Assembly (NCBI GenBank): GCA_963678705.1
Contig: OY783203.1
Span: 26,704,535-26,768,534 of the forward strand
Direction of reading: 5' to 3'
DNA length: 64,000 nt
Origin: Panorpa germanica
Taxonomy: Eukaryota > Arthropoda > Insecta > Mecoptera > Panorpidae
Part shown: piece by piece, positions 14,320-63,282 of the stretch
How the letters are laid out: each line of letters starts with the position of its first letter
How positions within the stretch are numbered: the stretch's first letter is position 1
Made by a program: the position numbers and the translations under genes
Notes under the pieces: model-generated
What the model was told of the DNA's origin: nothing
The model's database searches: none
Seen by the model: the letters and a program-made list of their open reading frames with translations, nothing else

Positions 14320-16150
14320 ATCTTTTTTAAACATGAATCATCACCACTGAACTTTCCATATTTAAACCACAACAGCATTTCACAAAAAGATAAAATCGCG
14401 TTACGTTCATTTATTGTTAACATTTAAAATAAGCTACAAAGAGACATAGCTACTTTTTTTAAGTGTATTTAACGGATTGCCAGATTATGATAAATAATGC
14501 TCTGAGGTTAAATCAAGTGAGTTAAATTGTCCAACTCACAAGGTAATTGGAGTGCTTTTAGAATCAATGTTTAAGCTACAACTAAGCACCTGAAATGTCG
14601 AATAAAGGGGAGGAATAATGGTGGTGAGAAGAAAAGGGGATGATACAGAACAGAACAGAATGAGGGATGATTTGATATTTAAATTCAAGCTGTGATTTCA
14701 GTTATAAAGTGTCGGTATCCTATTGAGAGTTGTCTGAGGTAGACATAGCATCAGACGCTAGAGAGGCAGTGATAGGGAGGAGAACAGCGAGGGAGAGGGG
14801 ATGAACGAGCAGCTGTAATTCCTATTCTCTTCACACAATGTTTATAAATACACTTATGTCGATATTTTTTGTGTGTTTCTCTTTAATTTATGAAACTGAT
14901 CAACTTTTCATTGTTAAATTTGAATTTATATATAAAAGTTGTTAAAATCAATTTTATAAAAATTAATAAATATATAGCTATAATAATTAATGAAAAAGAA
15001 GTTATATAATATATGGGCAACTGTTGCTTTCATTTTCAAGTGTGTGTTATTTCGACATGACGCGCTTGACTCATTGACAGACTTGTAGTACCAAAACTCC
15101 ATTGAAATAAATGGATGGTTTTACATTAATAAAATATTTTATTTAAACAAAACCTAGTCATAATTTATCTAAAAGGACATTCTTTTATGCTTTCTATTGG
15201 ACAATATTATATTCCTTGAATAGTTTTTGCTGCATAGCGCTTTCTTTCCTATTGTCAAGCCCTATCTAATTTTATTTACTCAGATCGTTTCAAGTTACTT
15301 GAATATTTAAAAAAATGCCTGTAATATAACCTATCTTTTTTTGATAATAGCTTTATCAATACATTTATTTATCCGAGTGTAGTAGGGGTATATTTCGTTG
15401 AAGTTTTTAGACCGTAAAATATGCAATGATGCTAATGATAACATAATAAACACAATTATGTACAATTTTAATCATAACAACAATGAACTCGTATTATTTT
15501 AATTTCATTATAAATTTATATTATATTCCATAATAGAATTTAATGAACTACAATTAAAATTGAATATATGTTCATATTCATAAATTGGTTTACAAATGTA
15601 CCAACCTTAATTTACATAAAATAGATTCATTATTTTAGACAATAATTAAATATACTCGTATATACTACGTATCGATCGTCCAGTTCTTTTGTGAAACATC
15701 TCCGAAAAACCGAATTTGTGAAGTCTTATGTAAAATTGTACTCTCTATCTGATTTAATACTTAGATAAGTCATAATGCAGATAAACTTGTCGAGTAAAAT
15801 GCTTGAAACTCGAATATTGTTTTCGTGTTATCTCAAAACTCAATGTTTTGAAATGTGTTTATGCTAAACTGCCCGATCGATATACGAGTATTTACAAGTT
15901 ATTGTTATATATTTTGTAAACAGGCGCTTCCAGGCATTGGTTAGATTGCAAGCGCTTGTTCAGAACGTTCAGGTTGTAATTGTATTATACTAAATATTGA
16001 ATTGTGTTACTTTTAATAACACTGAAGGCTAAATATACATTTATATTAATATTCTAACTATCTATTTGACAATATAGATCAATCAGTCTTCTTGGAATCG
16101 GTAATACTCGTGCATTAAATTAACAATATATGAAATAAATGACATTGAAA
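14320..16150. other. Gene-free stretch
   Basis: Contains a purine-rich patch at about 14590-14660 and again at 14750-14810, then long AT-rich sequence. No supported genes or paired repeats. Confidence 0.45.
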
Positions 16151-16156
16151 ATATAT

Positions 16157-16426
16157 ATTAATAATTTTCGATTTTGTGAAAATTATTTCTGCGAAAGCTG
16201 CGATATCCGGATTGATTATTACCCAGAACTGATGACTGCATTTATTAAACCCCTAAAAACAGGCATAAAATGATTCTGCCAGAAAATACGTATTAATTAT
16301 TTTCCATTTTGTGAAAATTATTTCTGCGAAAGCTGCGATATCCGGATTAATTATTACCCAGAACTGATAGCTGCATTTATTAAACCACTAAAAACAGGCA
16401 TAAAATGGTTCTGCCAGAGAAATTGA
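16157..16426. repeat. Two-copy tandem repeat, period 135 bp
   Basis: The segment from about 16157 to 16291 is repeated with few changes at about 16292-16426. Shared blocks include ATTTTGTGAAAATTATTTCT, GCGAAAGCTGCGATATCCGG, TTATTACCCAGAACTGAT, GCATTTATTAAACC and CTAAAAACAGGCATAAAATG. Matching positions are offset by exactly 135 (ATTTTGTGAA at 16171 and 16306). Both copies share one orientation and no coding frame. This could be a minimal piece of a satellite or a local duplication. Confidence 0.85.
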
Positions 16427-18628: not shown

Positions 18629-19770
18629 CAAAAATAATTGTAATTTTTTTAAAAATATTCTTTTCATAATACACACATATATTTTTAACAAGTATTTTTA
18701 ATTACCCCCACTCCTGGTCACCTGACTACTCGTACGACAATGTCCAACCAATCACCGATCAGCGTACACAGACGCAATGAATAAATAAATGTTGTATTTA
18801 AATTATCAGTATGAATTTAGTGTAATTAATTAAACCAATCTACGGAGATGAGCACGATCTGGAAAAGCAATAAATTATCTTTAAATATAAATAAAATGAC
18901 AGTTGTTAAAAGCAATTAGAGGTAAATGAATTATATTTACAAATATTTTTAAGTGGAAAAGTAAAAATATGATCACCTGCACATTGATATTTTAAAAACA
19001 ATGTTTGTTTAATATAATTATTTTTAAACAAAAGTTGGCTCTTTTTCAGCGTTGTTGCCAGATTGACTTTTTATTATGATTTTTTATATTTAAAAAAAGA
19101 ACTGCTAACATAGGTGAATCCCGCCGAAATAGTATCAGGACAAGTACTACATAATATTAAAAAGAAATAGTTATGTATAAATAAAAACATATTCCAATTC
19201 TGACATAAAGATATAATTAAAAAAATATTCACATTATATTTATAAGACTAACTCATTAAATCTGACAACAGCCCGCTGCCTTAAGCATGATGATTAATTT
19301 TTAAAAATAAAAGAAATTATAATAAAAAGTCAATCTGGCAACAACGCGGAAATAGAGACGACTTTAGTTTAAAAATAATTATACAAAACATACATTGTTT
19401 TTAAACTGATAATATGCAGGTGTTCATTTGTTTACTTTTTAACTAAAAAATATTTGCAATTTAAATTAATTTACCTCTAATTTTTTTTAACATCTGTCAT
19501 TTTGTTTTTAGTTATAGATAATTTATTGTTTTGACCTTGATTTGTTTAACATTCTACAGATCGTACCATCCCTGTAGATTGGATTAATGAATTATCTTAA
19601 ATTAATGCTGATTATTTAAATATAACAATTATTTGTTTATTGAGCCTGTGTGCGCTAATCGGTGATTGGTTGGACATTTTTTCCGGGTAGTCAGGTGATC
19701 AGGAGTAATGAGAAATATGTGTGTATTATAAAAGATTTTGCAAAAAAATACAATTAGTTTTAAAAAGTAA
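18629..19770. mobile_element. Long inverted-repeat (foldback-like) element
   Basis: Two arms of about 470 bp (about 18629-19100 and 19305-19770) are imperfect reverse complements around a unique centre of about 200 bp. Matching blocks, from outside in: a TAATACACACATAT block; ACTCCTGGTCACCTGACTAC against the reverse of a GGTAGTCAGGTGATCAGGAG block; TGTCCAACCAATCACCGAT; CAATAAATTATCT; AATTAGAGGTAAAT; GTTGTTGCCAGATTGAC and TTTTTATTAT. Mismatches are spread through both arms, so the arms are old or no longer corrected. No ORF or clear target duplication was found. Confidence 0.8.
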
Positions 19771-19974
19771 CTTGAACCGGCAGCACGTCTCTGCTGCTCT
19801 GAGCGTAAAATTACTAATTATTTTTATTTTCTAAAATTTTAGTATGTACAAGAAAACGTGTTTTAACCTGTTTTAGACCATGCGACATTTTCACTTGTTA
19901 GAAATTCTAACATAATTTTCATGTAAGAGCCATTACTTTTCTAATAGATATTTATTTTTTATGTTATTTTATAG

Positions 19975-20128
19975 TTCATCCAAAAAGTAATACGTTGAAT
20001 ATCACTACCTCCAAGTGCACTAGGCAAAGTTTACACTGACGAATCCAAGATACCTGCGAGTCCTACGCCTTACATATGAAAAGACCACTCCATATGACTT
20101 TCTGGGATCCCACCGTACTCACTAAATT
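19975..20128 (+). other. Putative exon 1 of spliced locus A
   Basis: Preceded by a pyrimidine-rich acceptor (TTATTTTTTATGTTATTTTATAG) and followed by GTAAGTTG. It is more GC-rich than its surroundings. It carries an in-frame stop (TGA at 20037), then the first in-frame ATG at 20076. A possible earlier exon at about 19843-19920 has splice-like borders but is too AT-rich to support. Confidence 0.4.
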
Positions 20129-21634
20129 GTAAGTTGAATACTATGTTATTCTTTTTAAGAACAGTCCATGCAAATATTTTGTTGCATTATGTATTCCCGC
20201 TTAAAACAAATGTACCCTCTCCTCCCGTACCGACTGTACGCTACACCAGTGCTGCAATGCTGGTTCGTTATTAGACTCAAAGTTACAGATCATGTATAAT
20301 AGATTGCCAATTTACAATAAAGTTCATAGAGATTTTAAAGGTAATGCACTCATTGAATATGATACATTCTTGTTTATTGAATGTATCATATTTAATGTTT
20401 ATTGATGTATAAAGTCAATGCCAGCCTCATGATAGTGTAAGCAGTATTGGATGTTAAAATAACAATTATAGAATTGTCACTAGATATAATTGAAAGCAAA
20501 CTTATACACAAGTAAAACTTATCGTTGTATTATTAATACTATATAAAAATTTATTTCACATACTGCAAAAAAATAATTAAATAATTTATTTGAAGTGATC
20601 TATTATATGCACTTTGTAACTTTTGCTATAGGCTTCAAGGTGTCTGTACTGTTTATATTTTCTACGAATGATGCCCACCATGATAATGACTATACCAAAT
20701 GCAGCCTTACAATCAGTTGTGTGGTGATTGCCAAAGAACTAACATTGCTCTGGTATTATTTTTACAAAAATTATTTCTAAAAATTGAAATTTTGTTTTTA
20801 GAACTCAAAATTATTCATTTTATTAATGAATTATTAATTACCAATTATGTAACATTGGGGTTATTGTTTTAAACACGTTTTTTCGTAAAATATATTACCT
20901 GACTACGTATTTCTTGAGATCGTCATTTTCAGACATGTTCAGACTTGCATAGCTGTGTGAAACACGTGTTGGAATTAGTACGAACATTTTAATTATTTTA
21001 TTTCAAGCATTATATATGGAATATTTGTCAATTTTTTCAATATGTTTTTTTTTTACACCTGCGGGTCTCTAGCTAGGGCTACGGCTTCCTAGAGCACAGC
21101 GCGTCTGTGTTTGATTTCTGTTGTCTTTAAAATATGGAGATTATTTCAATATGTATTTTTTCTACAAAATTATTAATATGTAATTAAAATCTAAATTCAT
21201 TGTTGAATATTAAAGACATTTATTTTTGTGAGTTTTTATATTGAAATATTTATATGTATTTTATTTTTATTATTGAAACTACAGTTCCACACCAAGTAGA
21301 CTATATTATGCATCTATACGACGTACTCCTGGATCTGTAGGAGCAGGCTTTCTCCTGGAAACTTTGATTTATATTATTGGTAAGTTTCATTTTTTAAAAG
21401 CAATTAATATTATTTGCAATTTTAATTTTAGAATTTATATATCTTTTTCAACAAGTGAAAATTAAAAAAATTATTTAATTTAAAAATTATTTTGTTTACG
21501 TAGGTTTGAATGTTTACAGTTTTGTTCGAATTCTAAATTTTATTGTTGTCATTTCAGACCAAGTTGACCTTAGCGTTGATCCCAACCGACTTCTGACTCC
21601 TGGTGCAGCTTTGACCATCTCCAGGGAACTGTGA
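20076..21634 (+). CDS. Putative spliced small protein, 74 codons (locus A)
   Basis: I do not recognise a family. Exons 20076-20128, 21285-21379 and 21558-21634 (exon body to 21646) join in one frame. The borders are AAATT|GTAAGT, ...ACTACAG|TT, ATTG|GTAAGT, TTTCAG|AC and TTAG|GTAAGT. The frame opens at ATG 20076, after an in-frame stop at 20037, and ends at TGA 21632, 12 bases before the last donor, so nonsense-mediated decay is not expected. Both junctions split a codon and keep the frame. The product would start MKRPLHMTFWDP and contains two TPG motifs, one each from exons 2 and 3. There is no signal peptide or membrane segment. It may instead be a non-coding RNA with a chance frame, or an inner part of a larger gene. 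Confidence 0.35.
20351..20397. repeat. Hairpin with 19-bp stem in putative intron 1
   Basis: AATATGATACATTC at 20356-20369 pairs exactly with GAATGTATCATATT at 20379-20392 around a 9-base loop. The stem extends four more pairs past one G-T position. It is shorter than usual animal microRNA precursors. It lies in putative intron 1 of locus A. Confidence 0.6.
21061..21130 (+). repeat. tRNA-like SINE head in putative intron
   Basis: CTAGCTAGGGCTACGGCTTC followed by CTAGAGCACAGCGCGTCTG and TTTGATTTCTG resembles a tRNA head with a weak B-box. No acceptor stem is seen, so it is a SINE or pseudogene relic. Confidence 0.3.
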
Positions 21635-21744
21635 TAAAATTATTAGGTAAGTTTGATATATTCATTATTATAATATCGTTTTTTTATATAATTATATTAG
21701 GTGCATTCGTATACAAATTCTAAGTTCTTACATTCCTGGGTACA

Positions 21745-21855
21745 CACTTTATTAGGCAGCGGTGTGGTAACATATATGGGGCTTCAGTAATAGGTTTAAT
21801 ATTGGCTCAATCCCTCACATATGTGTACCACACTGCTGCCTAATAGGTTCATGTT
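21745..21855. repeat. Inverted pair of family H SINE tail fragments
   Basis: TTTATTAGGCAGCGGTGTGG at about 21750 is reverse-complemented by CCACACTGCTGCCTAATAGG at about 21827, with ATATATGGGG/CCTCACATATG inside. Both are the tail block of the SINE seen at 5.1, 27.2 and 49.0 kb. Head-to-head insertion or partial inversion is likely. It lies in putative intron 2 of locus A. Confidence 0.6.
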
Positions 21856-21966
21856 TATGTAAATACAAAATTAATTTTAAAAAATTTATAAATTCAAAAT
21901 GGATTGATTTCTAATTGATACCATTAGAAAAAATATTTTTTCTAACTGTTGTTGTACTTATTGCAG

Positions 21967-22130
21967 AACGTTGCTCCACGTAGTGACTTATTCTACATCA
22001 GAAATGCGAGAAGATTACCAGAAGATAAAAGAAAAGCTGCTTAGGCGCAGCGATGTCTACTAGCAGTTAGCAGTACGCAGAGTTCAGACCGCAAGTACAA
22101 TTTCATTTCATGGTGACGGTTCTAAGCAAC
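21967..22130 (+). other. Putative terminal exon of locus A
   Basis: Follows an acceptor TTGTTGTACTTATTGCAG and stays GC-richer (AACGTTGCTCCACGTAGTGA, AGCAGTTAGCAGTACGCAG) to about 22130. Given the stop in the previous exon it would be 3' untranslated sequence. No clear AATAAA is seen close behind, so the end is not defined. Confidence 0.3.
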
Positions 22131-22302
22131 AAGTGTCGTCTAAATCATTAAAAATCATTTAAATTTAAATTATTTAACAATTTAGTAATCCATAAATATT
22201 CATTCATATTTTATTTTCACTGTAAGAATAATTCCACTGATTTTTAATGGGTTAGATTAATATTTTGAAAATGTGCAACTGTTCTATTTCCTGTCCCTAC
22301 AG

Positions 22303-22385
22303 TAAACGGTTTTCGGTTTCGCGTCGTTTTCCGGTTCGTCGTGCGCTGAACCGATGCGCGTTGTTCGCGGTTTTTGATTAATGGG
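22303..22385. other. CpG-rich patch after an acceptor-like site
   Basis: About 80 bp rich in CG dinucleotides (TTTCGCGTCGTTTTCCGG, GAACCGATGCGCGTTG), just after CCTGTCCCTACAG at 22291-22303. It could be another exon or a promoter patch of the locus that continues at 23.4 kb. No direct proof of either. Confidence 0.25.
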
Positions 22386-22612
22386 TTTGTGAACCATGTT
22401 TTAATTTCTATAAAACTGTAAAGTTGGCCACCAGGACCTTAAATGTCAAAATATTTTTTAATAACTTGCTTTTTTTTAAAAAGATATTAACAATTAAAAT
22501 AGTCATTTTTTCCCTTAAATTATTAAAGGGATTCAACGTTTTAGAAAACTCCAACACATGTAACGTCACGTCGACTAAGTTGCAAGCTTTATACAACAGA
22601 GTATAACACAGA
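22386..22612 (+). repeat. Interspersed repeat family M, copy 1
   Basis: Shares ordered blocks with 48327-48560 and, more weakly, 27218-27395: GGACCATGTTNTAATTT, TATAAAACTG, AAAGTTGGC, CAGGACCTTAA, ATATTAACAATTAAAATAGT, and a terminal TACAACAGAGTATAA. No inverted ends and no ORF. A few hundred bases long with indistinct ends. Confidence 0.6.
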
Positions 22613-23124
22613 ACTCTTATACATATAAAAAATAACTGATTAAAAGAATTATATAAAAAGATAAAAAAAAAACTATCCCTAACAGTGCGACGTGTTACGT
22701 CATAAATACGACCGACATCTGTAGCGCTAAAACTACAATTCAAATTTTTAATTATATTTATCATATATAGAAGCCTGTTCCAGGTTTGATTTTTTGGATT
22801 TAAAATATTTTTTATTATTTATATCTTAAGTGAAACAATATACCTTAATTTAAGTTTGTAACTAATTTCTTAATAGTAACTGCACCATTTCCCGTCTTCT
22901 TCTTTATAATTTAATTGAAAAATATGATCCAGACCAAACCAATATATTTATCTATTTCGACCATTTCTAGAAAAGTATTTTTTTAATTATATCCTAAAGT
23001 GAAGCTCCGCACTAAATTGCAATTTTTGTATATATTATTCCTATAGTAGTCTATTCCTTTTGCTAACAAGCAGATATTTCGTTTTCTCTATCTATTATCA
23101 TTACACATTGTGTACTACGATTTT

Positions 23125-23232
23125 GTAAGTACATAATAACAACCCAAATATAACTCTGGTTCTGGGATTGAACCCAAAGATACAGAAGTCTATTATCAAG
23201 CATCAATGCTCAGGCCACTGTGCTGTTGTAGT
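23125..23232 (-). repeat. tRNA-derived SINE (family H), head fragment
   Basis: On the minus strand it reads through a CACTGGCCTGAGCATTGATGC-like head, a B-box GGTTCAATCCC and the CCAGAGTTATATTTGGGTTG block. The tail is missing. Confidence 0.55.
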
Positions 23233-23435
23233 ATTAATTATATTCCTAATATATTCATTTGTCGTCAAAATCTATCGTAATTTAAATAAACTAAAACACA
23301 TTTAAAACAATTAGAGTTTTGCGTATTTTAAACAAAAGTGAAAACTGTAATGAACAATGGACCAAAGTGATGTTTTAAATAAAAATTAAACTAACAGTGA
23401 TTTAAATTAAGGGTCTAAAATTTAGTGCATTGTGG

Positions 23436-23639
23436 ATGCAGCGGCTTGAAGCTGGAGCCATCGTGCGCTGGACTTTTAAAAGAAAGGTAATTCAAGATTT
23501 CAATGTTAATTTCATATTATTATTTAATGTTGATAATATTTTTCTAATCAATGTTTTTCTGTTGTTACAGATGAACTACAGGACCCCCGAACCAGCCTAC
23601 CTGATTTATAGCCTTTCGATGCATTGTTTTTATAATTAA
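23436..23639 (+). CDS. Putative spliced short ORF, 39 codons (locus B)
   Basis: Not recognised. The exon ending at 23486 (AAAAGAAAG|GTAATT) and the exon 23571-23642 (GTTGTTACAG|ATGAAC ... AAAAT|GTAAGC) join at a codon boundary. The frame runs from ATG 23436 to TAA 23637. The product would start MQRLEAGAIVRW and contains RTPEPAYLIYSL, loosely like the RTPG segment of locus A. Further exon-like segments follow at 23726-23791, 23880-23917 and from 24219, each with AG before and GT after, but carrying no shared frame. This could be the second half of one long transcript with locus A or a related neighbour. A non-coding RNA is equally possible. Confidence 0.3.
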   Translation: MQRLEAGAIVRWTFKRKVIQDFNVNFILLFNVDNIFLINVFLLLQMNYRTPEPAYLIYSLSMHCFYN

Positions 23640-23725
23640 AATGTAAGCAACACATATTTTTATTAAAATTGGAATAACAAATAATTGGTAATATTGTTGT
23701 AAACAAATTATTTCTATTGTTTCAG

Positions 23726-23917
23726 ATTTCTTTCAGTAGCAGTTCATCTTTAGGGGCAGGAGTCATCTTGCATTAGGATGTTATCAGAAAGGTGATTGTC
23801 AAACTATTATATACACTATGCACTTAGAATAATCTAATTCATCTTTAATGTTTATCTAATCAATTTTCATTAATTTTAGCTCACTACATGGTTTCAAAAG
23901 CAGTGACAATGAGCTCG
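23726..23917 (+). other. Two further exon-like segments of locus B
   Basis: 23726-23791 lies between TTCTATTGTTTCAG and AAAG|GTGATT. 23880-23917 lies between TTAATTTTAG and CTCG|GTGAGT. Both are short and GC-richer than their flanks. An acceptor-like TATATCTTTGGCAG at 24205-24218 may start a last exon. They add no open frame to the 39-codon ORF and would be untranslated. Confidence 0.3.
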
Positions 23918-24744
23918 GTGAGTGTTTTTTAAATATTTCAGTGGTTTCCAAACGTGTCTTAACTACAAATAAAAGTAGTACGCCCTCCTCCCCAATATCT
24001 TACCCTCTTTTTTATTCGCGTTTTTGTTAAATATAGGTTTTAGGTAGGAAGTTATGTATATTCATATCGATATTCCCGTGCACCTTAAGTGCCATATCCC
24101 ACAGTTTGGAAACTTCTGCTTTTTTGGTGTAGGGATGATAAAATACTGTGCATGTTGACACTTGTTGCATTTTTTTTTTTGTATAAATTTGATTTGATTT
24201 TTTTTATATCTTTGGCAGAATTAAATCTTTCAAGGACACAAATCGATTCTGTCCTATTACATTTTATTTTATTGTGTTATGTTCATTTCTGTTTTAGGTT
24301 TTTGTATTTTATGTTTAATTTACGATATGAAATTGATTATACGCTGTTGAATATGTTATGTTTATTATGTTATTTATTTATTAGATTTAGGTTGTTTACA
24401 ATATTATATTTCTTACGTATCGTTTGATTTTTAATTATTTATTTTTAAAGGTATCATTAATACGAAAGCCAATGCATCTTTAAAATCTGTTTATTATGAG
24501 AAAATTTATTTTAAGAACCGAAATGTTTTTAAAGTTTAATGAGATCTGATCTCTTAATAAAATAAAATAATAAATTTATATAAATTTTAATACACATATT
24601 ATTTAATAAGCTATTTATATATATTTATTTATTTATACGGACAATAAATTAACAAACAGATATGTTTCAAGTAATTGAAAATTCTTAAAGTCCAAAAATA
24701 TAGCGACTGCATTCTCTCTTCGATAATATTCGATTTATATATAG

Positions 24745-27395: not shown

Positions 27396-27805
27396 TAAAA
27401 GAGATGCATGCAAGTGCCAATGATACGTCAGATACTACTTACAGCTGATCGAGCAACCCACAAAGCTTGATATTATGACCGTTGTAGACTAAGAAAAATA
27501 AAATTGATTACTATCGAAAATATAAATCGAAACATGAGTTGAATCGCAAGATTTAGAGAGAAAAGGACGTGCAGGGTGTGCGGGACGGAGATAGAAACGG
27601 TGGAGCAAATTAAGTTTTCATGTGAGAAAAAGGTAAAAAGTGAAAAGAATATTGTGCAGTTGTTAAAGGGAGGCAGTGAAGGGAAGACGTAGAAAGAGAA
27701 GGAATGGCAGAGTAGAAACGGGAGAGTAGCAGGAAGGGGTTTAAATTTATATGTTTTGTTTTTATTTTTATTTTTTATTTTGGGAGGAGTGAGAATAGTT
27801 AGATA

Positions 27806-28504
27806 CCAGGCATGTATTTTAAGTAAGTACCGTTTTGCGTTTCCGCCTTTGCAGCGCTACGGTCGGCGTTCCGCGCATGCGCGCTGGTTACCTACATCTC
27901 TTGTCTACGCACTGACGCCATTACAGTCTGATTCTTCATTGTATACGTTGTTTACTGAGTGTTTAAGATGCCTCCGACAATCGTGAGTCCCGCCGATTGT
28001 GAAGTACGGGCTGTTATACGATTTCTTAGTGCTAAAGGCGTAAAACCGATCGATATTCATCGTGAGATCTGTGAAGTTTACGGACAAAACATTATGAGTG
28101 ATGGAATGGTAAGGAAATGGGTGAGAGCATTTAAATATGGCCGCACAAATGTGCATGATGAAGAACGGAGTGGGCGTCCTTCGGTCTTTAATGAAGATTT
28201 TGTGCAGAAAGTGGAAGAAAAGGTGAGAGAAAACAGACGCTTTACAATTTCATCAATGTGCGACTGGTTTCCTCAATATTCTCGTAGTGTTTTGTATCGC
28301 ATTATGACAAGTCAGGCGGCAGAATTTTATGAGGAGGGTATTCAAAAACTGGTGCCACGTTATGACAAGTGCCTCAATATTCACGGAAATTATGTAGAAA
28401 AGTAGATTAAGGTACAGGCTTTCATGTAAAAATAAAATTATTGCGATATCTTTGCACGTCTTTTTTTAATTCCAAAACGGTACTTACTTAAAAAACACGC
28501 CTCG
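27806..28504 (+). mobile_element. Internally deleted mariner transposon (699 bp)
   Basis: The 32-bp inverted ends (27806-27837 and 28473-28504) differ at about three positions; the inner part reads TTTTAAGTAAGTACCGTTTTG-like on both sides. A TA duplication lies at 27804-27805 and 28505-28506. The uninterrupted paralogue at about 8680-8695 (TTAGATATAATTAGGATC) gives the empty site. Full mariners are about 1.3 kb, so close to half is missing. The flanks show it came after the LINE copy. Confidence 0.9.
27968..28405 (+). CDS. Mariner transposase lacking its catalytic core
   Basis: About 145 residues against roughly 345 in full transposases. The N-terminal half is a typical mariner paired-type DNA-binding region: a first helix-turn-helix (EVRAVIRFL...SDGMVRKWVRAFKYG), then NVHDEERSGRPS and a second (VEEKVRENRRFTISSM...FPQYSRSVLYRIM). 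It then jumps in frame to the family's extreme C-terminus (AEFYEEGIQKLVPRYDKCLN). The whole D,D34D catalytic block is absent, so no strand cleavage is possible. I chose ATG 27968 because the family starts close to the first helix; an in-frame GTG lies 9 bases upstream. The product could still bind the inverted ends. That would be inference; the frame may be open only because the element is young. Confidence 0.85.
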   Translation: MPPTIVSPADCEVRAVIRFLSAKGVKPIDIHREICEVYGQNIMSDGMVRKWVRAFKYGRTNVHDEERSGRPSVFNEDFVQKVEEKVRENRRFTISSMCDWFPQYSRSVLYRIMTSQAAEFYEEGIQKLVPRYDKCLNIHGNYVEK

Positions 28505-28632
28505 TATAATAAGGATCACAAATGTAATTAAGCACAATGATATTTAATTTAATGATTTAAGGCAGAAGAATTTAGTGCCCAATGGCAAAAACAATAAAAT
28601 AATAAATAATATAATAAAAAATAATAATAAAA

Positions 28633-57732: not shown

Positions 57733-59466
57733 TTACACTTCTATATTATTTTCTATCACAAAGTTTGTTAATATTTCCGCCGTTGCTTCACTTGTCATTA
57801 AACAGGACATATTGACTGGGAACTGTGTTACATTACGTAAATCATTTAAAAGTCTATCAATTTTTGATGATAAAAGATGACACCCTAGAATTATATGGTC
57901 CAAAGACCCTTCTTCTCCACATATACAATTTGGTGTGTCTTTTATATTTATTTTGTATAGATGAGCTGGACATCTAGAATGCCCAGATTTCATTCGACAA
58001 TTTGTTGAAATATATCTTCGTGAATGGTTTTTATTAAACCATGTGGTTGTTGGAATTTTTTGATTCGCTGCAAAAAAATTTTTTCCAGTACTTTGACTTT
58101 TCTCATTATATATACTCTGCCATTCTGCCATACAATTTTCTTTAATTATTTTTTTGGAATCATTTATTGACCAATTTATTTCTATTATTTCCCCATCTAC
58201 ACAAGCTTCTTTGGCCAGTTTGTCAGCCATTTCGTTTCCTTTTATGCCTACATGTCCAGGAATCCAAATAAGTTTAACATTGATATCATTTTTTTTCATT
58301 TTTAAAAGATATTCTTTAATTGAACATATTTTGTTATTATTATTGTTTTTGAATTTATTGTTATTTAAAGATACACAAACACTACGAGAATCTGTGAAGA
58401 TTAATATATTTTTATTGTCAGTTTTTTGTATTATTTCTAGTAATTTCATAATTGCTGTTATTTCTGTATTATAAGAATTTGTGATGTTGTTAAGTTTGTA
58501 TTTGTACTGTTGATCTGTATTATAATTGAAAATGCCAATTCCTCCAGTTTTAGAGTTTTTTTCGAATGAACCATCGGTAAACCATATACTCCAGTTTATA
58601 TCATCTTTTGTTATATATTCCATATATTTTTGATAAGTTATTTCCTTACTGTCATTCTTCTTGAACAAATTTATTTCTGTATGTATTGTTGTCATGCTTA
58701 TTTCTAATGGAAATTTGAAAAAAGGTATAATGTTGTGTACCTCTAAGTTCAAGTTATTATATCTATCAAAACTAGTTAAAAGTGCCGGTTTTTTATGAGT
58801 TGTCCAATATGGTTTATTATAAAGAACATATAGTTTAGATAATCTTGTATTTAAGGGGCCACATGAGTTATGTCTGTTTTTACAAAAGAAACTGTCTGAT
58901 ATTTGTTGTATTCTGATATTTACCGGAGGAATATTAGTTTGATAGTTGAGGATTTGGATTGGTGTTGAAACCATTGCACCTAATATTATTCTTAAACATT
59001 TGTTTTGTATAATTTCAATTTTTTTTAATCTTGAGTTATTTGCGGTGCAGATCATAGTACTAGAATAGTCAATATGCGGTCTAACAATAGCTTTATATAT
59101 TTTTATTAGGGTTGTTGGGTGTGCGCCCCATTTGTATCCTGCTATACATCGCATCAAATTTAAGCCTTTTTGACATTTGTTAATAATATGTGCAATTTCT
59201 TTCGCCCAAGTGCTTTTCGTATCAAAGAATATACCCAGAAATTTGGTATTTGAAGTAACAGTTATATTTTTATTTCTGATGGTTATTTTTGGACTGCAGT
59301 TTATTCTATGCCTTGTAAATATAACTATTTTACTTTTTTCTGACGATATATTTAATTTGATTTCCTTTAATAAAATATCTAGTTTTCTTAATTTCGATTG
59401 TAATCTGTTTTGAGCTATATCTTGTGTATGACCCATACTATAAATAACCATGTCATCTGCATACAT
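57733..59466 (-). pseudogene. LINE ORF2, 3' part: RT core end, RNase H, zinc finger
   Basis: 577 codons, downstream of the frameshift and without a natural start; the YADD box of the reverse transcriptase is at residues 2-5. The thumb region (KFLGIFFD at about 75) follows. RNase H lies at about 290-420: acidic residues in FTDGS (about 296), TEITAI (about 335), FTDSRS (about 356) and EMADKLAKE (about 412), with the conserved IPGHVGIKGN before the last. A C-terminal Cys/His cluster (CRMKSGHSRC ... CICGEEGSLDH..LGC) at about 490-528 is typical of this group. In an unbroken element this would be fused to the part at 59499-61442; alone it lacks the palm start and cannot act. Confidence 0.9.
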
Positions 59467-59498
59467 CAGTACTGTTGTGTTGTTATCTGATAATGTTG

Positions 59499-61442
59499 TT
59501 AACTTTTCTGTGTATATGTTGAATAATAAGGGAGATAATATTGAGCCTTGTGGAATTCCGTGATTAACTTATTATTGTATCTAACTGTTATTTCTCTATT
59601 TTGGAAGTAGTTTATAATCCAGTTGGATATTTTGGAAGATATACCTATGTTTTCTACTTTTTCTTTTAATATTTTTAGATTAACATTGTCATAAGCAGCT
59701 TCAATGTCAATGAAAGCAGCTATCATATAATGATTTTTACTGTATGTTCTTTGAATATCGATATTCAATATGTTTAAGTTATGCTGTGTACTTCTTGTTT
59801 TTCTAAACGCAAATTGTAACTCAGGTAATCTTTTATGATGTTCGAGATACCACTCCAGTCTGTTTTTGATGATGGATTCCATAGTTTTGCCCATACATGA
59901 TAGTAAAGTAATTGGTCTGAATGATTCTTCTTTGTTTGGATCTTTTCCTGTTTTTAATATAGGAACAACGATATGTTTTTTCCAGTCTAATGGTATATCA
60001 GCAGTGTTTAATGACAGATTGTATATTTGTGTAAGATGATTTATTGCATTGTCAGGTAAGTTTTGTATCATTTTGTAATTTATTCTATCAAATCCTGTGC
60101 TACTGTTTTTATTATGATTTAACGCGAATTTTACTTCATTTTTATTTATGTTATTATCTAGAAAATTATCTTTTACGATGGTGGTGGTAGTAATATTTAA
60201 ATTGTTGTTCTGTGGAAATTTTTTTTTAATGAATTCTTCTATTAAATTTTCATTATCACTTATCCTTTTAGTACTATAGCTTTTATTGTTAATTTTTCTT
60301 ATATTATTCCAGACAATGTTGGTTGTTGTGTTTGGGTTTAAATTCTCGCAGAAATTTTGCCATTCTATTTTTTTTCTGGCTCTAAAATATCGTCTGGTTT
60401 TAGCTTGATGTTTTTTATAATTTAAATAATTCGCCATTGTCATGTTTTTATTAAAAATAGTTAGTGCTAATTTTCTTTGAGCTATCATTTTATTGCACTC
60501 AGTGTCCCACCAAGACGGTTTTATTTTATTAGGAGTTATATTATACAATCTGGTAGATGGGATATGTATGTCTGCCGAATTATTAATAACATCTCTAAAT
60601 TGGTTGTATTTGTTTTCAACATCTTGGGGATTACTTGTGATTCCATTTGTGCTAAGGTTTGAAATTCTGCTTTCTATTTCAAGGCTATATTTCTCCCAAT
60701 CTGCTTTTCGGAAATTTCTCCTCGTTAAATATTCAGATGTACGGTAACGGTCTTTATTATAGTCATTCAAACAGAAAAAAATTGGGTAGTGATCACTACC
60801 TAAGCTATCTGCAAGAACTTGCCACGAAGTAATTTGTTGTGTTAAAGTCATTGATACCAATGTGAGATCCAATATACTGTCCCTTGTACTGAGATTGCTT
60901 ACTCTAGTTGGTTTATCATCGTTGATAATATTTAGATTTTCGTTTTCTATGAAATCTAACAATTCGTTACCTTCATACTGACTACCTGGACAATTTATAT
61001 CCCAAGCAAGATTAGTCGCGTTAAAATCTCCAGCAAGTATAACAGGAACATCTATTTGTTGTTTTATCTGTGACCAATTAGAATTAGATAGTTTATGATT
61101 CGGTTTAGCATAGATTGATAAAATACATATTACATCAGTTTCGTTATGTGTTAAAATTATTCCAACTATTTCGACCGAATTAAATGGGTTATTTAGCATT
61201 ACTCTTTTATATTTTATAGATTTATGAATCAAGATAGCAGCACCCCCGTGGGGATTATAGTTTGTATTCTGTATCCTATCTTCTCTTTCAATAAAATAAC
61301 CTTTGATGTTGAAATTGATATTTTTTGTTAAAAACGTTTCTGATAGTATGCATATATGTATGTTATGCTTCTGTAACATATGTTGTAGTTCCTCTTTAAT
61401 ATATCTGACTCCTCTGCAATTCCATTGAATAAAATTTATCAT
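59499..61442 (-). CDS. LINE ORF2, 5' part: endonuclease and start of RT
   Basis: 647 codons from ATG 61442. The apurinic-like endonuclease spans about 1-225, with QWNCRG (6-11), SETFL (34-38), AGDFNAT (137-143) and GSDHYPI (215-221), all catalytic motifs present. Reverse transcriptase starts near 490 (WKKHIVVPILKTGKD), with FRPITLLS, LPELQFAFRKTRSTQ and box A FIDIEAAYDNV at about 575-585. After residue 627 the frame runs into unrelated sequence and stops. The expected GIPQGS box is in the other frame just beyond 59560, so a single base appears to be missing at 59560-59561 relative to the family. Confidence 0.93.
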   Translation of the reverse strand: MINFIQWNCRGVRYIKEELQHMLQKHNIHICILSETFLTKNINFNIKGYFIEREDRIQNTNYNPHGGAAILIHKSIKYKRVMLNNPFNSVEIVGIILTHNETDVICILSIYAKPNHKLSNSNWSQIKQQIDVPVILAGDFNATNLAWDINCPGSQYEGNELLDFIENENLNIINDDKPTRVSNLSTRDSILDLTLVSMTLTQQITSWQVLADSLGSDHYPIFFCLNDYNKDRYRTSEYLTRRNFRKADWEKYSLEIESRISNLSTNGITSNPQDVENKYNQFRDVINNSADIHIPSTRLYNITPNKIKPSWWDTECNKMIAQRKLALTIFNKNMTMANYLNYKKHQAKTRRYFRARKKIEWQNFCENLNPNTTTNIVWNNIRKINNKSYSTKRISDNENLIEEFIKKKFPQNNNLNITTTTIVKDNFLDNNINKNEVKFALNHNKNSSTGFDRINYKMIQNLPDNAINHLTQIYNLSLNTADIPLDWKKHIVVPILKTGKDPNKEESFRPITLLSCMGKTMESIIKNRLEWYLEHHKRLPELQFAFRKTRSTQHNLNILNIDIQRTYSKNHYMIAAFIDIEAAYDNVNLKILKEKVENIGISSKISNWIINYFQNREITVRYNNKLITEFHKAQYYLPYYSTYTQKS

Positions 61443-61647
61443 TTTAACTGTTTTAATTAATTATTGATTTTTATATCTGTCCTTGGTCTTGTTGTTAGAT
61501 TTATTTATATATTTTATTTTATTTTATTTTCTCTCCGTTTATATAATTATTGTTGATTTAATATTTTAGTAAATTTATTAAACGATTAGGTTTAGTGATG
61601 TGAATAGATTTTTAAAAAATAAACTTAATTTATATATCGATGTTTTC
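61443..61647 (-). other. LINE ORF1-ORF2 spacer
   Basis: 205 bases between the ORF1 stop and the ORF2 ATG, AT-rich. It has no stop-start overlap or slippery site, so ORF2 would need re-initiation or internal entry. A frame in this strip overlaps the ORF1 end but reads as chance. Confidence 0.6.
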
Positions 61648-63075
61648 TTACGAGTTTGGCCATTGTACACTAGATATTTGTTTCTTGTAGCTTCTAAGGG
61701 ATTGGGATGTAATATTTGGGTCTTTGTTTGTATTTTTAATTTTGTCATCATTATTTTTATTATATATTGATGTATAGCAGGTATCATTATCATTGTTTTC
61801 CATTGTAATATCAGGTGTCTCTTGGTTGATTTGCTTTCTGTTTTTTCCTTGATTAGTTATCTTAAGGTATGTGTCGCTTTCTTCATTGTTAGGTTTCTTT
61901 TCTTCTCTTCTTCTTTTTGGAATTGGTTCTTTAGTGGATGTCGTAGGTTGTGGTTGACTGTAAGATCTTTGTAACGAGTTACCTGTATTTGATTTATTCA
62001 CTCTGGTATTAGTTCTTCTGGTTAAAGGGTTTGGTTTGTATGTTGGAATTATGTTGATACTATTGTATTTATTAGTGATATTGGGAAAAGTCTCATTGTA
62101 GTTTAGAGCTTCAAAAGAGTTTTGAGTTCTTACTGAGTATAAATAGTCTGTATTTTTTTCTGTTAATTCTAATTTTGCTTCATAAAAACTGAGATTGTGT
62201 TGGGCCATGAGATCTTTTATCTTGATTTGTCTTTTTTTTTCAGGACATTCATTGTCTGTAGCCTCGTGGTTAAGTTTACAATTTATGCATGTCGGATTAG
62301 GAGATGTGCATGCAGTACGTAAATGATCTTCACTTCCGCAGAATTTACATTTTGCTACTTTTGCTCTACATTTTGTGGCTGCATGTCCAAATTTAAAACA
62401 ATTATAACATTGTATCGTCTGTTGTACAAATGGTTCACATGCTCGTCTCACTCTCCACATGTAAACATAAGCAGGAATAGCAAGTCCTTCAAAGAATAAT
62501 TTCACTGTTGTACTGGGTTCATATTTAATAGCTCCGTCAACTCTTAGTTTTCGATTTAACCTTTGCACTCTCGTTACTTTAAAAGGTGGACACTCTATAT
62601 TATTTAAAATTGTATCTTCCGAATATTCAATATCAACACCTTTTATAATAGCAACTTTTGTGCACCAGTAAAATGGGATAAACGCTTCATACCCATTGTT
62701 TTTCAGCAATGTTGATTTGGTAATTTCATTAGCTAGTACTGCATTAGCACATTGAACGATTACTCTATTTCTTCCCACTTTTTTAATTTCTATTATATTA
62801 GATTTATTGCTAATTTTACATATTATTTCTGCTAATTTAAGAGAACTAAAAAATGTATTTCCATCACTATTATTTTTAACTATCATTACTTTATACGAGT
62901 CATATTTTGTTTCTGTGTTGTATAAATTATTAAATATTTTTTTAACATTGTCACTATTGTTATTTAAGTTTTCTGTTATATCACTGGATGTTTTATCTGT
63001 AGGAATTGATTTGTTAGTCACAGAGTTGTTTTTATTGATCGGATTTTTATCGGGAGGTTCAACCTCCATATCCAT
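61648..63075 (-). CDS. LINE ORF1, Gag-like RNA-binding protein
   Basis: 475 codons, intact. The N-terminal 60 residues are N/S/T-rich and probably disordered. About 60-220 forms an RRM-like Gag core (FFSSLKLAEIICKI, VGRNRVIVQC, FKVTRVQRLNR). Three zinc knuckles follow: CYNCFKFGHAATKC (223-236), CKFCGSEDHLRTAC (243-256) and CINCKLNHEATDNEC (about 263-277). The third has wider spacing than CX2CX4HX4C. The C-terminus is N/T/K-rich with a basic PIPKRRREEKK segment. The product would coat the LINE RNA and deliver it to the target site. ATG 63075 is the first start after the A-rich 5' UTR. Confidence 0.95.
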   Translation of the reverse strand: MDMEVEPPDKNPINKNNSVTNKSIPTDKTSSDITENLNNNSDNVKKIFNNLYNTETKYDSYKVMIVKNNSDGNTFFSSLKLAEIICKISNKSNIIEIKKVGRNRVIVQCANAVLANEITKSTLLKNNGYEAFIPFYWCTKVAIIKGVDIEYSEDTILNNIECPPFKVTRVQRLNRKLRVDGAIKYEPSTTVKLFFEGLAIPAYVYMWRVRRACEPFVQQTIQCYNCFKFGHAATKCRAKVAKCKFCGSEDHLRTACTSPNPTCINCKLNHEATDNECPEKKRQIKIKDLMAQHNLSFYEAKLELTEKNTDYLYSVRTQNSFEALNYNETFPNITNKYNSINIIPTYKPNPLTRRTNTRVNKSNTGNSLQRSYSQPQPTTSTKEPIPKRRREEKKPNNEESDTYLKITNQGKNRKQINQETPDITMENNDNDTCYTSIYNKNNDDKIKNTNKDPNITSQSLRSYKKQISSVQWPNS

Positions 63076-63282
63076 ATTGTTAATTAACCAGTGATAATTA
63101 AATAGAAGTTACTTCACTTCTAATTAATAACACTTAATAATAATATAAATTATAATTTAAAAAAAAAATAAATCACGAAAAAAAAATTTTATAATTTGCA
63201 AAAAAAAAAGATCACTATTTATTTTATTGTTTTGTTTATTGTAAATACGTGCGCTCACCAAGAAGACTCGATGTAAACTGTG
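63076..63282 (-). promoter_or_regulatory. LINE 5' UTR with probable internal promoter
   Basis: Read on the minus strand, the element starts CACAGTTTACATCGAGTCTT and is followed by TTGGTGAGCGCACG about 20-35 bases in. LINEs of this group carry initiator and downstream core elements at these positions; the CACAGTTT start resembles an initiator. The rest is A-rich (three A-runs of 7-10 in 63154-63210). The promoter is inferred from position, not measured. Confidence 0.45.

What the first reader, a model, noticed from the sequence alone, without database searches (positions are those of the whole stretch)
19975..22130. Spliced small-ORF locus in otherwise gene-free DNA
Four segments bounded by good acceptor and donor sites are GC-richer than their surroundings, and the first three join into one 74-codon frame that opens after an in-frame stop. 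Both junctions split codons yet keep the frame, which is unlikely for random sequence of this composition. The predicted product matches nothing I recognise. It could be a lineage-specific small protein or a spliced non-coding RNA.
Basis: partly seen in the sequence, partly recalled or inferred. Interest (0 to 1): 0.7.

Follow-up and report, generated by a model that had tools for sequence, protein, structure and literature searches.

The report
Dispersed spliced non-coding gene family
The four segments are exons of one copy of a scorpionfly gene-like repeat found at dozens of places in the genome, in which the splice signals have been kept but no protein reading frame has, so its likely product is a spliced RNA rather than a small protein.

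Summary
The segments are real, but the fourth ends at a GC donor (22090), not 22130, and at least five more exons follow. The locus is one of many: the 3' module has 40 scored places of 164 candidates, the e4 module 40 of 97, the promoter-like module 40 of 64. In 13 of 40 3'-module places all three lie in order. Chromosome 16 holds a tandem array. Exon pairs e2/e3 and f1/f3 are paralogous. Across 16 copies, seven splice dinucleotides are kept in 108 of 109 cases (other GT 67%, other AG 77%); 8 hold-out copies gave 56 of 56. Exon indels are multiples of three in only 9 of 41, exon lengths change frame between copies, stop-free stretches are near shuffle level, and changes in the proposed ORF show no third-position excess. 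Part of its frame, around the e1-e2 junction, stays open in three copies, but so do other frames. Best reading: a dispersed family of promoter-bearing, spliced, non-coding units spread as DNA. Transcription is unproven, a mobile-element origin is not excluded, and function is unknown.

The parts
19298..19761 (+). Promoter-like module A: conserved inverted CCAAT box (ATTGG at 19665) and TATAAA at 19727
   Evidence: 40 scored of 64 candidate places in the genome; the two boxes line up in many of the aligned copies; motif positions. Promoter activity not shown.
18630..19096 (-). Second, inverted copy of module A, head to head with the first (76%)
   Evidence: another head-to-head pair lies on chromosome 17
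19975..20128 (+). Exon e1 (segment 1 of the finding)
   Evidence: AG/GTAAGT; donor kept in 7 of 7 comparable copies, acceptor in 2 of 3
21285..21379 (+). Exon e2 (segment 2); longer in 8 of 9 other aligned copies
   Evidence: donor kept 8 of 8, acceptor 6 of 6 comparable copies; lengths
21558..21646 (+). Exon e3 (segment 3), a tandem duplicate of e2 including its donor
   Evidence: local alignment score 62 with flanks, 0 of 2000 shuffles; acceptor comparable in 1 copy only, donor in none
21745..21850 (.). Strong hairpin inside the intron between e3 and e4; no comparable hairpin in the other copies folded
   Evidence: MFE -51.3 for a 115-nt stretch in the window, -13.0 to -29.1 in 10 other rows; only sub-threshold miRNA-family matches
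21967..22090 (+). Exon e4 (segment 4, corrected end), followed by a GC donor GCAAGT
   Evidence: acceptor 7 of 7; donor G[T/C][A/G]AGT in all 14 places found by an exon-side motif that itself required the G
22303..22375 (+). Exon g: start defined by acceptor CCTACAG; end uncertain; CpG-rich
   Evidence: acceptor 4 of 4 comparable copies; alignment
23404..23486 (+). Exon f1 (5' end uncertain), related to f3
   Evidence: donor kept 14 of 15 and 8 of 8 hold-out; likeness to f3, 0 of 300 shuffles without the donor, score 36 with it
23571..23642 (+). Exon f2, indel-rich (28 events per 100 nt, 4 of 20 multiples of three) with intact splice dinucleotides
23726..23791 (+). Exon f3, related to f1; likeness to e2 tentative (score 23, not beyond shuffles)
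   Evidence: both sites kept 16 of 16 and 8 of 8
23880..23917 (+). Exon f4, donor GTGAGT; the most conserved exon (pair identity 0.94)
   Evidence: both sites kept 16 of 16 and 8 of 8
23938..24124 (.). Conserved downstream intron stretch bounded by an inverted repeat CAGTGGTTTCCAAACT / AGTTTGGAAACTACTG, reminiscent of hAT-type ends (recalled likeness, not tested)
   Evidence: alignment; inverted repeat read by eye
24386..24580 (+). Probable terminal exon with AATAAA at 24556 and 24569; boundaries inferred
   Evidence: read by eye from tails of copies, acceptor lost in at least one of them (c21b); motif positions

Best explanation
This is one X-linked member of a dispersed repeat family of non-coding transcription units in the Panorpa germanica genome. 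A full unit starts with a conserved CCAAT/TATA module, runs through about nine or more short exons and ends after about 5 kb. Inferred mechanism: RNA polymerase II transcribes the unit from module A, the spliceosome joins the exons, and the mature RNA itself, not a peptide, is what selection kept. The family grew at the DNA level, introns included, by exon duplication, tandem cassette arrays, inverted duplication and scattering of whole or partial units, with exchange between copies. Shown: the copies, module order, paralogous exon pairs, kept splice signals and unkept frame. Inferred: transcription, polyadenylation, and what the RNA does. The likeliest role is either a multicopy host RNA gene or a selfish repeat whose source copies need a spliced RNA; I cannot separate the two.
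For: Genome-wide copies: 3' module 40 scored of 164 candidates, e4 module 40 of 97, module A 40 of 64; the window is among them. 13 of 40 3'-module places have e4 and A upstream, same strand and order; 19 of 40 have e4 upstream, and 0 have e4 in the wrong order or strand within 5 kb. Splice sites of the 3' module: 108 of 109 kept in 16 copies, other GT 551 of 827, other AG 481 of 625; 6 of 20000 random picks of sites do as well. Hold-out of 8 further copies: 56 of 56, 2 of 20000 random picks. 5' part: 35 of 36 against 340 of 528 GT and 229 of 395 AG. In the hold-out donors +3 is always A or G, and -3 of the acceptors is C in 23 of 24 and T in one (rows). The e4 donor varies between GT and GC. 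Not coding: exon indels that are multiples of three are 2/12 (f1), 4/20 (f2), 3/6 (f3) and 0/3 (f4), together 9 of 41, against 20 of 78 outside the exons. Stop-free lengths in 16 sequences, the window's included, are near shuffle level (p 0.08-0.83, median 0.29). In the e1-e2 part of the ORF, differences from the window over 10 copies are 140/383, 158/388 and 129/384 at codon positions 3, 1 and 2 (summed, whose counting began at the third base of the ATG). Tandem cassettes on chromosome 16. Inverted pair, 91-96% alike. Exon pairs e2/e3 and f1/f3.
Against: No transcript evidence was available. The copies are related, so site counts are not independent, and they were chosen by likeness to the window copy. 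Few flanks are shared outside the unit and copies sit on many chromosomes, which looks like a mobile element as much as a gene family. The first exon, f1 acceptor, exon g end and terminal exon are not settled. The e1 acceptor is kept in only 2 of 3 comparable copies. Several donors are weak beyond the dinucleotide (f2 donor is GTATG in all 8 hold-out copies). Exons f3 and f4 are more conserved (0.86, 0.94) than introns i2 and i3 (0.80, 0.81), and the stretch after f4 is as conserved (0.83, 0.91), which splicing alone does not explain. 13 of 16 stop-free lengths have p below 0.45, a slight lean to longer frames, and part of the window's frame stays open in three copies. The window copy may itself be dead.
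Confidence: 0.7

Rival explanations
1. A family of transposable elements (DNA-mobilised, perhaps non-autonomous) whose source element carried a spliced gene; the window holds a decaying copy and the splice sites reflect constraint on the source. (Overlaps with the best explanation, which leaves host gene or selfish repeat open.)
For: Dispersal over 17 of 21 chromosomes in the listed places, little sharing of flanks, introns retained, copies 5'-truncated (c17b) or with internal deletions.
Against: No Pfam transposase or polymerase above cut-off in six frames of the unit or of one stretch of the chromosome 16 cassettes. No fixed 3' end among 12 printed tails, and no terminal inverted repeat apparent in the window's self-comparison. 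Exon frame not kept, so the spliced product would still be non-coding.
Confidence: 0.4
2. A lineage-specific small protein of 74 codons.
For: Open frame across two split-codon junctions; ATG ORF p 0.016 by shuffling. The same frame is open for 41, 45 and 60 codons across the e1-e2 junction in c17a, c21c and c3.
Against: Stops in every frame of c17a, the only copy covering e1-e3; other frames open 40-53 codons across the same junction in c17a and c10c, and 45 in c13b; no third-position excess of changes; e2 length differs in 8 of 9 copies; no Pfam or PDB match.
Confidence: 0.04
3. Pseudogene copies of a protein-coding gene family (for example a fast-evolving secreted protein) whose intact source was not found.
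For: GC-rich short exons, tandem arrays and exon duplication are common in such families (recalled); 3'-module frames run 63, 68 and 72 codons in L059a, c10c2 and L059b (p 0.11, 0.11, 0.08).
Against: Dead copies should lose splice sites as fast as frames; here frames are lost and splice sites are not. No Pfam match.
Confidence: 0.12
4. Chance splice-like sites in AT-rich DNA, no gene-like unit.
For: Individual sites are weak: with recalled weights the best donor ranks 7th of all GT in the window and three others between 57th and 175th (two donors and two acceptors went unscored there through an offset of mine).
Against: Paralogous exons with shared donors and 56 of 56 sites kept in hold-out copies.
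Confidence: 0.02

Closest known systems
FAM230 / FAM247 lincRNA families in human chromosome 22 low-copy repeats (PMC6162681, PMC5906017, PMC7549372; search listing and start of abstracts seen)
   Same: A family of non-coding RNA genes made by copying genomic DNA.
   Different: Those are described as formed in segmental duplications of chromosome 22; this one is scattered over many chromosomes as a short unit with few shared flanks, in an insect, with exon-cassette arrays.
Xist/roX-type repeat-bearing RNAs of dosage compensation (recalled)
   Same: Non-coding, repeat-bearing exons; the window lies on an X, and the X of Panorpa cognata is reported as dosage compensated in heads and carcasses (PMC10715201, passages seen).
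   Different: No Rfam family at gathering score in the window and only sub-threshold hits in the unit; 28 of the 40 listed 3'-module places are autosomal; no functional evidence.
Non-autonomous DNA transposons / captured-exon elements such as Helitrons or Pack-type elements (recalled)
   Same: Dispersed, intron-containing pieces of gene-like sequence.
   Different: No fixed ends found; exon-intron structure kept across the family, whereas captured fragments are expected to decay (recalled).

Membership tests
Spliced long non-coding RNA gene | Conserved splice signals | tested here: met
   108/109 and hold-out 56/56
Spliced long non-coding RNA gene | No conserved reading frame | tested here: met
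   part of one frame stays open around the e1-e2 junction in three copies
Spliced long non-coding RNA gene | Is transcribed and processed | not testable with these tools
   no RNA data in the collections
Protein-coding small-ORF gene | Frame conserved between paralogues | tested here: not met
   c17a has stops in all frames; no third-position excess
Protein-coding small-ORF gene | Recognisable protein family | tested here: not met
   0 Pfam and 0 PDB matches; a new protein need not match
DNA transposon | Transposase in the element or a relative | tested here: not met
   six-frame Pfam scans of window 19700-24600 and L059 3250-7500; other copies not scanned
DNA transposon | Terminal inverted repeats and target-site duplications | tested here: inconclusive
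   no terminal inverted repeat in the window's self-comparison; variable 3' ends; target-site duplications not systematically tested
Processed retrocopy / LINE product | Introns lost, poly(A) tail | tested here: not met
   introns retained in aligned copies; no poly(A) directly at the ends of homology printed
Known structured RNA (Rfam) | Match at gathering score | tested here: not met
   0 in the window at gathering; only sub-threshold hits in the unit; none up to E 2 in L059

The most novel reading that the evidence does not exclude
A new class of dispersed insect RNA gene: a self-amplifying, promoter-bearing unit of many tiny exons in which natural selection maintains splicing while letting frame, and much of exon f1-f2 sequence, drift. 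The spliced RNA, possibly from many X and autosomal copies, would act as an RNA, either to the family's own benefit (spread or escape from silencing) or in chromosome-scale regulation.
Probability: 0.2. Interest if true: 0.75.

Novelty: new variant of a known kind. Interest (0 to 1): 0.5.

Why it matters
Dispersed repeats are usually kept for a coding gene or for their ends. A family in which the exon-intron architecture is kept without the frame would be direct evidence that a repetitive non-coding RNA must be spliced to persist, and it offers dozens of natural variants as an internal test set. It also shows that a tempting three-exon micro-protein can be an accident within a non-coding unit.

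Tried and rejected
Small-protein reading: rejected on stops, frame changes and codon-position pattern. Chance splice sites: rejected by hold-out. miRNA in the e3-e4 intron: the window hairpin is strong, but the other copies folded lack a comparable one and Rfam hits are below gathering. Conserved exon hairpin in e2 (CTCCAG/CTGGAG): seen in some copies, not pursued. One repeat family of all four exons e2, e3, f1, f3: only the two pairs hold up; the link between pairs rests on score 23 and on a profile trained on the four themselves. Of 56 exon comparisons (28 pairs, both strands) two had 0 of 300 shuffles and two more 6 and 7 of 300, about what chance gives. Viral relatives: one exact 33-base pattern in viral contigs, 0 hits. 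LINE in phage records: no match. X enrichment: 12 of 40 listed 3'-module places are on the X, which is 10.3% of the genome (binomial 0.0005); I do not lean on it because the query is X-linked and only 40 of 164 candidates were scored. Literature: five searches. The listings of 63 and 88 (15 of 37 and 15 of 63,877 papers shown) named no such family in a scorpionfly, but 88 was swamped by human lncRNA papers, so I claim no proof of absence from print.

Full report
Where it is. The window is contig C21:26704535-26768534 of a 464,208,970-base assembly in 249 contigs. The total and the lengths of the chromosomes sampled match the published Panorpa germanica assembly, in which the 47.99 Mb chromosome is the X (PMC11464959, passages seen; the paper gives 254 scaffolds). 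The mitochondrial contig has an insect-type order with tRNA-Gln beyond the ND2 end (order read by eye). So this is, by lengths, scorpionfly X chromosome.

The observation. The four segments are present with the stated acceptors and, for three, GTAAGT donors. They are GC 0.39-0.46 against 0.17-0.28 in the introns between them. The 74-codon frame exists. By shuffling the joined 338 bases its ATG ORF has p 0.016 and its stop-free length p 0.058 (3000 shuffles). That is not compelling given the choice of segments.

Exons are repeated. e2 and e3 align over their length and through the donor (score 62, 0 of 2000 shuffles). f1 and f3, further downstream, are related (0 of 300 shuffles without the donor; score 36 with it). 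A link between the two pairs is tentative (best score 23). A profile of the four finds just these four in the window with E below 1e-7, but they are its own training set.

The locus is a family. Searching the genome with e2 gave a second place on C17, which matches window 19400-24484 in collinear blocks that include intron sequence. The 3' module (23404-24483) has 40 scored places of 164 candidates, the e4 module 40 of 97 and module A 40 of 64. These include the window itself. From the tabulated places, 13 of 40 3'-module copies carry e4 and A upstream in order on the same strand, 19 of 40 carry e4 upstream, and none has e4 in the wrong order within 5 kb. Module A occurs head to head at two loci and doubled in tandem at five or more. 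On chromosome 16 four cassettes, spaced 3.25-3.65 kb and 92-96% alike over the long matches, repeat the exon set without module A in the 19.5 kb read. A head-to-head pair 91-96% alike lies at C21:3.86 Mb.

Splice sites versus frames. In an alignment of the window's 3' module with 16 copies, the seven splice dinucleotides are kept in 108 of 109 cases. Other GT are kept in 551 of 827 and other AG in 481 of 625; 6 of 20000 random picks of four GT and three AG do as well. In 8 copies fetched afterwards and not used before, 56 of 56 are kept, and 2 of 20000 random picks match that. For e1-e4 and g it is 35 of 36 against 340 of 528 and 229 of 395; that test covers only copies alignable around each site, and e3 has one comparable acceptor and no comparable donor. 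Inside the hold-out sites +3 is always A or G and -3 is C or T; other donor positions are less strict. The e4 donor reads G[T/C][A/G]AGT at all 14 places found by an exon-side motif that required the G. In contrast, exon f2 has 28 indel events per 100 nt, 4 of 20 of them multiples of three; over four exons it is 9 of 41, outside them 20 of 78. f1 and f2 show pair identity 0.78, the intron between them 0.88; but f3 and f4 (0.86, 0.94) exceed introns i2 and i3 (0.80, 0.81). Exon lengths change modulo three between copies. Stop-free stretches are near those of shuffled exons (16 sequences including the window, one incomplete copy dropped; p 0.08-0.83, median 0.29, 13 of 16 below 0.45).

c17a, the only copy covering e1-e3, has stops in every frame. 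The window's frame does stay open for 41, 45 and 60 codons across the e1-e2 junction in c17a, c21c and c3, but other frames are open for 40-53 codons there in c17a, c10c and c13b. Differences from the window in the e1-e2 part over 10 copies are 140 of 383, 158 of 388 and 129 of 384 at codon positions 3, 1 and 2 (summed, where counting began at the third base of the ATG). A protein under selection should show an excess at position 3; there is none.

Interpretation. Neutral decay should strike splice dinucleotides and frames alike. Here splicing was kept and frame was not, so the lineages that led to these copies were probably selected for being spliced but not for coding. Module A carries an inverted CCAAT box and a TATA-like box in many copies, a reasonable promoter. 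AATAAA signals lie at 24556 and 24569. I infer a Pol II transcript of about nine or more exons. No transcript data were available, so this step is inferred.

How it spreads. Copies keep introns and, in c21a and c21c, an inserted repeat at the same position as the window, so spread is DNA-mediated. Few flanks are shared outside the unit, 3' ends vary, and one copy (c10a) joins a module A close to that of c17a (compared by eye) to a 3' module 92.7% like the window's. That pattern fits ectopic exchange and scattered duplication, but a mobile element with eroded ends is not excluded.

Not found. No Pfam family above cut-off in six frames of 19700-24600 (none up to E 1) or of L059 3250-7500 (two sub-cut-off minus-strand hits); no PDB relative of the 74-residue product up to E 1; no Rfam family at gathering in the window.

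Limits. Copies are not independent. Alignments in indel-rich exons are uncertain. Letters from the genome were capped, so 24 copies of the 3' module (16 and 8) were aligned, out of 164 candidates. No other mecopteran genome was available.

Noticed in passing
57733-63108: A LINE on the minus strand: ORF1-like protein with CCHC-type motifs (by eye; no Pfam match), then endonuclease, reverse transcriptase and RNase H domains in two overlapping frames, so the polymerase frame is interrupted.
   Followed up: partly
27959-28405: Mariner-type transposase fragment with the Mos1 HTH domain; near-identical pieces (98-99%) of 27801-28508 lie in the fetched stretch around a family copy on the X (c21b).
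   Followed up: partly
16147-16423: Two tandem copies of a 135-base unit, 92% matches.
   Followed up: no
23126-23225: A dispersed short repeat, SINE-like by its B-box-like stretch (by eye), present at the same position in copies c21a and c21c, useful for subfamily history.
   Followed up: no
22377-22753: Another dispersed repeat inside the window copy, with matches at unrelated positions in several fetched copies.
   Followed up: no
L060 and other contigs: Nuclear fragments of mitochondrial COX1: 20 matches in all, one of them the mitochondrial contig.
   Followed up: no
22091-22160: The intron just after the e4 donor looks strikingly conserved across copies (by eye), more than splicing needs; perhaps a regulatory or RNA element.
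   Followed up: no
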